A DNA stretch of 64,000 nucleotides, from positions 1 through 64,000 of the forward strand of contig JAHBWH010000018.1 of assembly GCA_019637115.1 (NCBI GenBank), written 5' to 3'. Within the stretch, counting starts at the first letter, position 1; every line of letters begins with the position of its first letter. The notes under the pieces were generated by a model. It did no database searches. It was given only the letters and a program-made list of their open reading frames with translations, and was not told where the DNA came from. A program made the translations under genes and the position numbers. Positions 4,880 through 21,057 of this stretch are shown here, in pieces. This DNA comes from Myxococcales bacterium (GTDB lineage: Bacteria > Myxococcota_A > Polyangia > Polyangiales > Houyiibacteriaceae).

Positions 4880-5944
4880 ATGACGAAGAAGGTCGCGGTC
4901 ATCGGTGGGGACGGCATCGGTCCCGAGGTCGTCGCCGAGGGCGTGAAGGTGCTCGAGGCGCTGAAGGAGCTTCGCGGCTGGGCGATCGAGCTGCATCCCT
5001 TCGAGCTCGGGGCCGAGCGCTACCTGAAGGACGGCACGACCTTCCCCGCCGAGGTCTCGGACTTCATCGCGAAGGAGTGCGACGCCGTGCTCCTCGGCGC
5101 GCTCGGCGATCCGCGCGTGCCGGACATGAAGCACGCGCGCGACATCCTCTTCGGTCTGCGCTTCGGGCTCGACCTCTTCGTGAACCTCCGCCCGATCCAG
5201 TGCCTCCACGAGCGCCTGATGCCGCTCAAGGGTGTCCGCCCCGACGAAGTCGACATCATCGTGCTGCGGGAGAACACCGAGGGCATCTACGTCGGCATGG
5301 GCGGCACCTTCAAGCAAGGCACGCCCGACGAGGTCGCGACCCAGGTCGACCTGAACACCCGCAAGGGGGTCGAGCGCATCATCCGCGAGGCCTTCGAGAT
5401 CGCGCGACGCACCGGGCGAAAGTCGGTGCACATGGCCGACAAGCACAACGCCATGCCCGACGCGCACGGCCTCTGGCTGCGCACCTTCCGCGAGGTCGCC
5501 ACCGAATACCCCGAGATCGCCGCCCACCACGTCTTCGTCGACGCGCTCTGCCTCTACCTGGTCCAGGACCCTCGCCCCTTCGAGGTGATCGTCTCCTGCA
5601 ACCTCTTCGGCGACATCATCACGGACCTCGGCGCGGCGCTCCAAGGCGGCCTCGGGATGGCGGCGAGCGGGAACGTGCACCCGGGGCGGGTGAGCATGTT
5701 CGAGCCCGTCCACGGCAGCGCCCCTCCCCTCGCGGGCAAGGACGTCGCGAACCCGCTCGCCACCGTGCTCACGGTCGGCATGTTGCTCACGCACCTCGGC
5801 TTCGAGGGCGAAGAGGCGCTGCTGACGCGGCTCGTCCGCGAGGCGATCGAGACCGGACATTGCACGCGCGAGGTCGGCGGCGACCTCGGCACGCGCGCGA
5901 CCGGCGACTGGATCGTCCGGCGCTTGCGCGAAGAGGCGAAGTGA
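4880..5944 (+). CDS. Isocitrate/isopropylmalate dehydrogenase-family enzyme
   Basis: NAD(P)-dependent beta-decarboxylating dehydrogenase, 354 residues, the usual length of 3-isopropylmalate dehydrogenase. Visible motifs: GGDGIGPEV at the N-terminus, LLGALGDP, LRFGLDLFVNLRPIQ (Arg residues that hold the malate part), ENTEGIYVG, MADKHNAM (the DK pair holding the catalytic Lys), the metal-binding NLFGDIITDLGAAL block and EPVHGSAP. LeuB is the most likely role, but homoisocitrate, isocitrate or tartrate dehydrogenase cannot be excluded from sequence alone, so no symbol is given. No leuC or leuD is nearby. Divergent from the VWA lipoprotein. Confidence 0.85.
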   Translation: MTKKVAVIGGDGIGPEVVAEGVKVLEALKELRGWAIELHPFELGAERYLKDGTTFPAEVSDFIAKECDAVLLGALGDPRVPDMKHARDILFGLRFGLDLFVNLRPIQCLHERLMPLKGVRPDEVDIIVLRENTEGIYVGMGGTFKQGTPDEVATQVDLNTRKGVERIIREAFEIARRTGRKSVHMADKHNAMPDAHGLWLRTFREVATEYPEIAAHHVFVDALCLYLVQDPRPFEVIVSCNLFGDIITDLGAALQGGLGMAASGNVHPGRVSMFEPVHGSAPPLAGKDVANPLATVLTVGMLLTHLGFEGEEALLTRLVREAIETGHCTREVGGDLGTRATGDWIVRRLREEAK

Positions 5945-19285: not shown

Positions 19286-20689
19286 TCAACATCCGCCGTG
19301 GAAGCGGCGGGCGGCGGTGGGGAAGATCTTCCCCGGGTTGAGGATCCCGCGCGGGTCGAAGACTTCCTTGATGCGCTCTTGGAGCGCGATCAGCGGCGCG
19401 GGCTGCTCGATCGGCAGATAGGGGGCCTTGAGCACGCCGATGCCGTGCTCGCCGCTGAGGGTGCCGCCGAGCGCGATGGTCCGCTCGAAGAGGCCGCGGA
19501 TGGCGGCGTCGACGCGGGGGCGGTCGTCGGGGTCGTCCCAGAGGAGGTTCACGTGCAGGTTGCCGTCGCCCGCGTGGCCGTACGTCATCACGCGGACGCC
19601 GTGGCGCTCCGAGAGCTCGGCGCACGTCGCGAGGAGGTCCGCGATGCGGCTGCGCGGGACGACGACGTCCTCGCTCAGCTTGAACCGCGCCTGCGCGCGC
19701 ATCGTGTAGCTCATCTCGCGGCGCGCGCTCCAGAGGCGCTCGCGCTCGGGGCCGCTCTTGGCGATGAGCACGTCGAGCGCGCCCGCGCCGAGCATGGTGC
19801 TCCCGACCCGGTCGACCAGCCCGTCGAGGTCGGCTTCGTCGCCGTCGACCTCCACGAGGAGCATCGCGCCAGCCTCCGTCGGCACGTCCAGACCCATGCG
19901 CGGTCGGAGCACGTCGAGCGCGAAGGAGTCGAGGAACTCGAGGCAGCGTGGCATCACACGCGCGCGGAGCGTCGCGGTGATCGCCTGCCCGAGCGTGCGC
20001 GCGTCCGGCAAGAAGACGAGCAGCGTCGCCACCGCCTCGGGCCGAGGGACGAGCCGCAGCGTCGCCTCGGTGATCACCGCGAGCGTGCCCTCGCTGCCGA
20101 CGATGAGGCTCGCGAGGTCGTAGCCCGTGACGCCCTTGGCGGTCGGCTTGCCGACGCGGAGGATGGTGCCGTCCGCCGTCACGACCTCCATGCCGAGCAC
20201 CCAATCGCGGGTGACCCCATAGCGGAACGCGCGAGGCCCGCCGGCGTTGCACGCGAGGTTGCCCCCGATGCGGCAGCTCGCGAGGCTGTTGGGATCGGGG
20301 CCGTAGAAGAGCCCCTCAGCCTCGACCGCCGCGTGCAGGTCGCCGAGGATCATCCCCGGCTGCACGACGACGCGCAGATCGTCCGCCTCGACGCCGCGTA
20401 GATCCGCCATGCCTTCGAGCGCGAGCACGAGCCCGCCCGGCACCGGCACCGCGCCACCGACGCGGCCCGTGCCACCCGCGCGCGGCGTGATGGGGACGCG
20501 GTGCTCGTGGCAGGCGCGTAGGATGGCCGAGACCTCCCGCGCGCTCCGCGCGTGGATCACGGCCTCGGGCACGACCGGGGTCGTCTCGCTCTCGTCCCGC
20601 GCGTACGCCTCGCGCCGCTCGAGCTCGCGCACGACGGCGCCGCTCGCGCAGGCGCGGTCGATCGCGAGGAGCGCCGCGTCGAGGCTCAT
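19286..20689 (-). CDS. GlcD/D-lactate dehydrogenase-type FAD-linked oxidase
   Basis: A 467-residue flavoprotein that oxidises a 2-hydroxy acid such as glycolate or D-lactate. FAD-binding PCMH domain: VVPEAVIHARSAREVSAIL, ITPRAGGTGRVGGAVP, VVVQPGMILGDLH, SLASCRIGGNLACNAGG, GYDLASLIVGSEGTLAVITE. C-terminal FAD-oxidase domain: GHAGDGNLHVN, SGEHGIGVLK and VFDPRGILNPGKIFP. This is the single-chain GlcD/DLD form; no GlcE or GlcF is beside it, so the electron acceptor is unknown. The start at 20689 (MSLDAALLAID) precedes the first conserved segment. A strongly structured 368-bp gap lies upstream. Confidence 0.88.
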   Translation of the reverse strand: MSLDAALLAIDRACASGAVVRELERREAYARDESETTPVVPEAVIHARSAREVSAILRACHEHRVPITPRAGGTGRVGGAVPVPGGLVLALEGMADLRGVEADDLRVVVQPGMILGDLHAAVEAEGLFYGPDPNSLASCRIGGNLACNAGGPRAFRYGVTRDWVLGMEVVTADGTILRVGKPTAKGVTGYDLASLIVGSEGTLAVITEATLRLVPRPEAVATLLVFLPDARTLGQAITATLRARVMPRCLEFLDSFALDVLRPRMGLDVPTEAGAMLLVEVDGDEADLDGLVDRVGSTMLGAGALDVLIAKSGPERERLWSARREMSYTMRAQARFKLSEDVVVPRSRIADLLATCAELSERHGVRVMTYGHAGDGNLHVNLLWDDPDDRPRVDAAIRGLFERTIALGGTLSGEHGIGVLKAPYLPIEQPAPLIALQERIKEVFDPRGILNPGKIFPTAARRFHGGC

Positions 20690-20812
20690 GAGGGGAACCT
20701 TGCGCTGAGCGCGGGGTGGGTCAACCACGCGCACGGACCTGAAAAGGACGCTCAGCCGATTCGCAAGCCGCCGTACTGGACGGCGCGCAGCGAGCGGAGC
20801 GAGCGCTTCGAA

Positions 20813-20900
20813 GTGGAATCGTTCGAAGCGGAGTGGACGAAGTCCACGGATCCGAACGATTCCACGAGAGTGTCGGGCCACGCGCGAGCGTGGACCCGAC
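20813..20900. other. Nested inverted repeats, possible structured RNA
   Basis: In the gene-free gap 20690-21057. Outer perfect 13-bp arms GTGGAATCGTTCG (20813-20825) and CGAACGATTCCAC (20853-20865) enclose an inner 6-bp hairpin GTGGAC-GAA-GTCCAC (20833-20847). Seven bases later a second hairpin pairs GTCGGG-CCACGC with GCGTGG-CCCGAC (20872-20900), with one bulged A and, on the plus strand, a GCGA (GNRA-type) loop. It lies upstream of the GlcD gene and downstream of the lipoprotein gene, both minus strand. Confidence 0.6.
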
Positions 20901-21057
20901 CCAGGCTCGTGGGAGTCGGCCTCGCGGGGCATCAGGCCCCCGTAGGGGGGCGACGCTCCTAAGGACGTGCCTGGCTCGGGTGCACGTTCCCGGACGGGTG
21001 GCGTCGCGGATCTCACCTCTGCTCGGCTGGTTGGCGGGCGAAACCGATCGAGCTTCG

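What the first reader, a model, noticed from the sequence alone, without database searches (positions are those of the whole stretch)
20813..20900. Nested palindrome plus GNRA-loop hairpin upstream of the GlcD gene
A perfect 13-bp stem encloses a 6-bp hairpin, followed by a 12-bp stem with a GCGA loop, all in a gene-free 368-bp gap. Such order is unlikely by chance and is not explained by an intrinsic terminator (no T tract). It could be an untranslated regulatory RNA for the GlcD-type oxidase, a small RNA, or a MITE-like palindromic element.
Basis: seen in the sequence. Interest (0 to 1): 0.6.

Follow-up and report, generated by a model that had tools for sequence, protein, structure and literature searches.

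The report
Two-hairpin mobile repeat of myxobacteria
The folded sequence next to the GlcD gene is not that gene's switch: it is one copy of a roughly 97-letter, two-hairpin repeat that has spread through the genomes of some myxobacteria and their relatives, often beside tRNA genes, and it appears in no RNA-family catalogue searched.

Summary
The structures are real: a 13-bp stem around a 6-bp GAA-loop hairpin, then a 12-bp GCGA-loop hairpin with one bulged A. They are not a GlcD leader; GlcD orthologues in relatives lack them. Together they form one copy of a dispersed two-hairpin unit (~92-98 nt). The unit stands alone, singly or in tandem, at unrelated sites in the congener (at least 112 hits to its first hairpin). 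In the window's genome it is inserted at one site in four IS91-type transposase gene copies, with empty sites in paralogues. It also lies at two sites, in opposite orientations, of a second repeat that starts after CTGA and has at least 72 copies; the window copy is nested in that. A covariance model finds the first hairpin patchily across the order and phylum. In other genera it lies just 3' of tRNA or tmRNA genes, in one orientation, often followed by an exact copy of the RNA's 3' end from the T-loop on. Both hairpins covary strongly; loops follow a GNA/GNNA rule that fits folded single-stranded DNA better than RNA GNRA. Best reading: a non-autonomous mobile element moved in trans by an unidentified enzyme acting on folded ssDNA. 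Mobility is well supported; enzyme and ssDNA step are inferred.

The parts
20810..20900 (+). two-hairpin unit (the finding): GAAG + nested hairpin + GAGAGT linker + GNNA hairpin; stands alone as a ~92-98-nt unit in the congener
20813..20865 (+). nested hairpin; outer stem 20813-20825/20853-20865, 2-nt bulge 20826-20827, GNA/GNA internal loop 20830-20832/20848-20850, inner stem 20833-20838/20842-20847, GAA triloop 20839-20841
   Evidence: model R1 hit, 82.6 bits
20872..20900 (+). second hairpin, 12 bp with bulged A at 20894, GCGA loop closed by C-G
   Evidence: covariation
20743..20967 (+). host repeat ('CTGA element') in which the unit is nested; 3' end decayed in this copy
20739..20742 (+). 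CTGA at the 5' edge of the host repeat
20762..20796 (+). 5' module of the host repeat, at least 72 copies in the genome
   Evidence: reversed-pattern control 0
20902..20967 (+). 3' module of the host repeat (AGGCTCGTGGGAG...), degraded relative to the consensus
19286..20692 (-). GlcD-type FAD-linked oxidase gene whose upstream gap holds the repeat
   Evidence: PF01565, PF02913
21058..21774 (-). upstream gene, no Pfam family, ends before the gap

Best explanation
The feature is one copy of a non-autonomous, dispersed two-hairpin repeat. The unit has a nested hairpin with a GNA/GNA internal loop and a GNA or GNNA loop, followed by a GNNA-loop hairpin. Shown: it occurs many times, singly and in tandem, at unrelated sites; it is nested at two sites and in both orientations in a second repeat; it is inserted cleanly into an IS91-type transposase gene that also has empty paralogues; in other genera it sits 3' of tRNA/tmRNA genes, often followed by a copy of the RNA's 3' end. 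Inferred (about 45%): during replication or transfer the unit folds as single-stranded DNA, and an enzyme supplied in trans, either an HUH transposase of the IS91 (Y2) kind or a tyrosine recombinase, recognises the hairpins and inserts the unit without a target duplication, with a preference in some lineages for the T-loop (TTCGA) of tRNA/tmRNA genes. The window copy then arrived inside, or inserted into, a second repeat that starts after CTGA, and it has no necessary role for GlcD.
For: Own-genome copies. Congener stand-alone and tandem units. R1 hits: G000 36, G008 112, G012 34, 29 of 184 order genomes, 17 of 379 phylum genomes at E <= 1e-6. Filled and empty IS91 sites. Y2_Tnp identity of those genes. 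Covariation: 12 of 19 pairs with double changes, 63 cells, 94% paired against 23-44% when slid, 0/500 shuffles; second hairpin, 53 double-change cells. tRNA/tmRNA linkage. Loop rule: with GNA/GNNA minihairpin stability in PMC4686876. No terminal repeats or target duplication.
Against: No transposition was observed and no enzyme identified. Y1_Tnp is absent in G000 and G008, and Y2_Tnp is absent in G008, which has the most copies. Among 20 Y2-bearing stretches, strong R1 hits outside the window's genome occurred only once, at the G024 tRNA-Leu locus. Covariation fits RNA as well as ssDNA, and GNA triloops also occur in RNA. The copies are related, so loop and pair counts are not independent. 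All genomes are drafts or MAGs.
Confidence: 0.75

Rival explanations
1. A structured RNA (small RNA or 3' RNA element): copies act in transcripts of neighbouring genes or behind tRNA/tmRNA genes, for example in processing or stability, and pairing is kept by selection on the RNA.
For: Strong covariation; fixed orientation and spacing 3' of tRNA/tmRNA genes in 18 genes; the CTGA repeat that hosts some copies often begins at an upstream gene's stop codon (22 of 31).
Against: Units occur inside protein genes, in both orientations inside another repeat, and in tandem; no Rfam family; no promoter-like or terminator-like site at the window copy; several tetraloops are GNYA, not GNRA.
Confidence: 0.2
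2. A cis-regulatory leader for the GlcD-type oxidase, read from the minus strand.
For: Lies in the gap upstream of GlcD; the minus strand folds as well as the plus strand.
Against: Absent upstream of GlcD in G008, G003, G011, G032, G033 and G002; copies elsewhere lie beside unrelated genes; the element itself is repetitive.
Confidence: 0.03
3. A site-specific integration element: the tRNA-linked units are miniature integrative elements moved by a phage- or island-type tyrosine integrase at tRNA/tmRNA 3' ends, and the dispersed copies are a derived off-target amplification.
For: Exact 15-22-nt direct copies of tRNA/tmRNA 3' ends starting at the T-loop flank the unit at ten loci, also at tRNA-Asp and with tmRNA confirmed by Rfam; tandem arrays.
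Against: No integrase was sought or shown to act on them; in G000, G008, G012, G034, G057 and G218 the units are dispersed away from tRNA genes.
Confidence: 0.3

Closest known systems
REP / REPIN elements with RAYT (Y1 HUH) transposases (PMC3733652, PMC8049555)
   Same: Short imperfect-palindrome repeats in many copies, non-autonomous, thought to move as ssDNA, with arrays and dimers.
   Different: Two unlike hairpins rather than one 20-40-bp hairpin; no GTAG or CGTC tag at the unit's edges; no Y1_Tnp gene in the two genomes where it is abundant; tRNA/tmRNA linkage.
Bacterial MITEs
   Same: Dispersed, short, non-coding, inserts into genes and other repeats.
   Different: No terminal inverted repeats and no target-site duplication.
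IS91-family (Y2 HUH) elements such as IS1294
   Same: No terminal inverted repeats and no target duplication; IS1294 prefers GTTC or CTTG (PMC6052338), and the tRNA T-loop contains GTTC.
   Different: No transposase in the unit; Y2_Tnp absent from G008; GTTC is not at the edge of all copies.
Integron attC sites
   Same: Folded single-strand recombination sites recognised by structure rather than sequence (PMC2727003, abstract).
   Different: No cassette genes; the attC box sequences were not tested for.

Membership tests
REP (GTAG/CGTC-tagged) with RAYT | GTAG or CGTC tetranucleotide tag at one end | tested here: not met
   Unit edges are GAAGYGG... and ...CCGAYG; flank composition shows no GTAG or CGTC tag
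REP (GTAG/CGTC-tagged) with RAYT | RAYT (Y1_Tnp, PF01797) gene in the genome | tested here: not met
   0 in G000 and G008, although other genomes with the unit have some
MITE | terminal inverted repeats and target-site duplication | tested here: not met
   Edges are not inverted repeats; no flank k-mer duplication clearly above mismatched pairs in 39 units
IS91-derived element | Y2_Tnp source element in genomes with many copies | tested here: inconclusive
   Present in G000, G057, G059; absent in G008 and G012; weak neighbourhood link
IS91-derived element | no terminal repeats, no target duplication, GTTC/CTTG target | tested here: inconclusive
   First two met; GTTC fits the T-loop and GGTTCGAAG edges but not most stand-alone G008 units
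Integron attC | attC-type core boxes and an IntI integrase | not tested
   not searched
Any Rfam family | score above the family's gathering threshold | tested here: not met
Intrinsic terminator | GC-rich hairpin followed by a T tract | tested here: not met
GlcD cis-regulatory leader | conserved upstream of GlcD orthologues | tested here: not met

The most novel reading that the evidence does not exclude
A phylum-wide class of minimal mobile elements, with no genes of their own, that move as folded single-stranded DNA built on GNA/GNNA mini-hairpins. Their ancestral niche would be the T-loop and 3' end of tRNA and tmRNA genes, with dispersed amplification in some lineages after escaping that target.
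Probability: 0.3. Interest if true: 0.8.

Novelty: new variant of a known kind. Interest (0 to 1): 0.55.

Why it matters
It would give a natural test of how the smallest mobile DNAs spread: a ~97-nt unit with a covarying fold, a sharp loop rule known from DNA chemistry, filled and empty sites in one genome, and a repeated link to tRNA and tmRNA 3' ends. It also warns that covariation in an intergenic hairpin need not mean a regulatory RNA.

Tried and rejected
GlcD leader: rejected from orthologues. RAYT partner: rejected for G000 and G008. IS91 (Y2) partner: tested through 20 Y2-bearing stretches; only the G000 insertions, the G024 tRNA-Leu locus and one weak hit in L327 (21.7 bits) carry the unit, so left open. 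Target duplication around stand-alone units: none found. Rfam in permissive mode: only chance-level matches for the window copy. Literature searches for tRNA-linked miniature palindromic elements, or for such repeats in Sandaracinus, found no description; one search was a malformed query. That library holds open-licence papers only, so absence there is weak evidence of novelty.

Full report
What is there. The 13-bp arms are at 20813-20825 and 20853-20865; the inner hairpin is GTGGAC-GAA-GTCCAC; the second hairpin (20872-20900) has a GCGA loop and 12 pairs, with one bulged A at 20894. Both strands fold far better than shuffles as DNA (z = -5.9) and the plus strand as RNA (z = -6.7). There is no terminator- or promoter-like site and no Rfam family.

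It is repeated. In the window's own genome (G000, 8.88 Mb, 434 contigs) the 166-bp stretch has nine near-full matches (the window copy included) and many partial ones. A 36-nt core of the nested palindrome has eight matches within three mismatches, against none for the reversed control, and the flanking 5' module has 72 within two mismatches, again against none. Aligned copies show a host repeat that starts right after CTGA and ends in ...GGAAGCTGA. Most copies are a short form without the two hairpins; a minority carry the two-hairpin segment of the finding between the 5' and 3' modules; others carry a related two-hairpin segment at a second place and in the opposite orientation (compare L001, L020 and L004). 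The window copy has a decayed 3' end. Where the 5' TGA could be tested, it is the end of the longest open frame in 22 of 31 copies (about 10 expected if frames were equal), so the host repeat favours stop codons; the window copy is an exception.

The two hairpins are one unit that also lives alone. In the congener (G008; its contigs match the record 'Myxococcota bacterium Prado145') the unit stands alone at unrelated sites as T[TC]|GAAGCGGAATCG...CGATTCCGCGAAACTATCGG-hairpin-CCGATG, about 92-98 nt, with tandem copies in L246, L256 and L262. In 39 such units I found no terminal inverted repeat and no flank duplication clearly above mismatched controls. In the own genome it interrupts four copies of a gene for an IS91-type transposase (LCRYVARPPL motif; Y2_Tnp) at one identical site, and three paralogues are empty there: GGTGGGGT-GAATGTCCACGCC (or AAATATCC) against GGTGGGGTC-GTTCGAAGCGG...GCCGAGGC-ACATCCACGCC. 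The shared site means one insertion followed by copying of the gene. The insertion shifts the reading frame.

Structure is conserved. Thirty-four copies from several genera align. Twelve of 19 pairs show changes on both sides, 94% of cells pair (23-44% when slid by 1-3 columns), and 0 of 500 shuffles reach the covariation score. For 58 distinct G000/G008 units both hairpins hold: outer stem 96.1%, inner stem 97.4%, inner part of the second hairpin 95.6% and its outer part 80.8% paired (one of its six proposed pairs fails), with 59, 23, 27 and 26 double-change cells. What is constant in sequence is the GNA pattern: GC-GNA-GYGGAC-GNA-GTCCRC-GNA-GC, with G and A of each GNA (nearly) invariant and N variable. 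In 54 distinct copies read in one orientation, the loop, left free in the search, is GNA in 35 and GNNA in 15 (7 of those GNYA, not GNRA); the second hairpin's loops are mainly GNNA closed by C-G, with GACA, GGCA and GTCA among them. Mini-hairpins with GNA or GNNA loops and G-C pairs are unusually stable in DNA (PMC4686876). This points to single-stranded DNA more than to RNA GNRA loops, but does not prove it, and the copies are related.

Distribution. A covariance model of the nested hairpin (R1) finds it in 21 of 34 genomes of the family, 29 of 184 of the order and 17 of 379 sampled from the phylum at E <= 1e-6: patchy, with large numbers in a few genomes (G008 at least 112, G000 36, G012 34, G057 at least 30). 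Named records are Myxococcota and Sandaracinaceae MAGs.

tRNA and tmRNA linkage. In genomes with few copies the unit lies 59-129 nt 3' of a tRNA gene (Leu, Lys, Asn, Val) or of tmRNA (Rfam-confirmed), in the same orientation in all 18 non-array genes tested. Ten of these loci have a further exact 15-22-nt copy of the RNA's 3' end beyond it, beginning at the T-loop; two tRNA-Asp loci add to this. Tandem units occur at tRNA-Leu, tRNA-Asn and tmRNA. In two genomes units sit within large tRNA gene arrays. This looks like insertion at the T-loop with the tRNA end rebuilt.

Function. GlcD (FAD_binding_4 and FAD-oxidase_C) has orthologues without the element in G008, G003, G011, G032, G033 and G002, so it is not a conserved leader. 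The best reading is a non-autonomous mobile repeat. Shown: dispersal, nesting, filled and empty sites, tandem growth, structural conservation. Inferred: movement as folded ssDNA by an enzyme in trans. RAYT-type Y1 enzymes are absent from G000 and G008. IS91-type Y2 enzymes fit the lack of terminal repeats and target duplications, and their GTTC/CTTG target (PMC6052338) fits the T-loop, but G008 has none detected and is a draft of 89% completeness, and the neighbourhood test was weak. A tRNA-targeting tyrosine recombinase is the other candidate and was not tested.

Novelty. By behaviour it works like REP/MITE-type repeats; by test it is neither (no GTAG/CGTC tag, no RAYT, no inverted ends, no target duplication). 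I therefore call it a new variant of a known kind. No description was found in the open-licence literature searched, which is weak evidence.

Noticed in passing
window 20739-20967; copies in L014, L018, L023, L046, L049 and others: The host repeat starts after (C)TGA and in 22 of 31 testable copies that TGA ends the longest open frame, i.e. a gene's stop codon.
   Followed up: partly
L003, L010, L054, L017: A second, ~94-bp tandem repeat (CTAGAAACTCGACTCGCACGCC...GGTCAGGAGCTGA) also ends in AGCTGA; the host repeat is inserted at its CTGA junction.
   Followed up: partly
L105 about 2412, also L026, L091, L063: A third repeat with inverted ends CTCAGTACAG...CTGTACTCAG, MITE-like, often directly 3' of the host repeat.
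   Followed up: no
L306, L307: Large tRNA gene arrays; by eye, some units appear to interrupt tRNA-like sequences in the D-loop. Not tested.
   Followed up: no
L306:2827-2959: YrlA (Y RNA-like) match, 70.1 bits against a cut-off of 69, inside the tRNA array.
   Followed up: no
L326 (G024:C12:92000-99000): tRNA-Leu with one unit and a repeated tRNA 3' end, followed about 0.3 kb later by an IS91-type transposase gene and, on the other strand, an ORF that looks like a relaxase (by eye).
   Followed up: partly
L206 (Clostridia MAG, goat rumen), 5491-5517: Exact core match at the very end of a short contig, in a phylum without other hits; possibly contamination or misbinning.
   Followed up: no
L248, L251, L259, L208: Another repeat (AATTGACGTTTTTGGAGCCGGCCGCCAGGCCGAGCGACCCGACGTCACG...) lies next to several stand-alone units in G008.
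   Followed up: no
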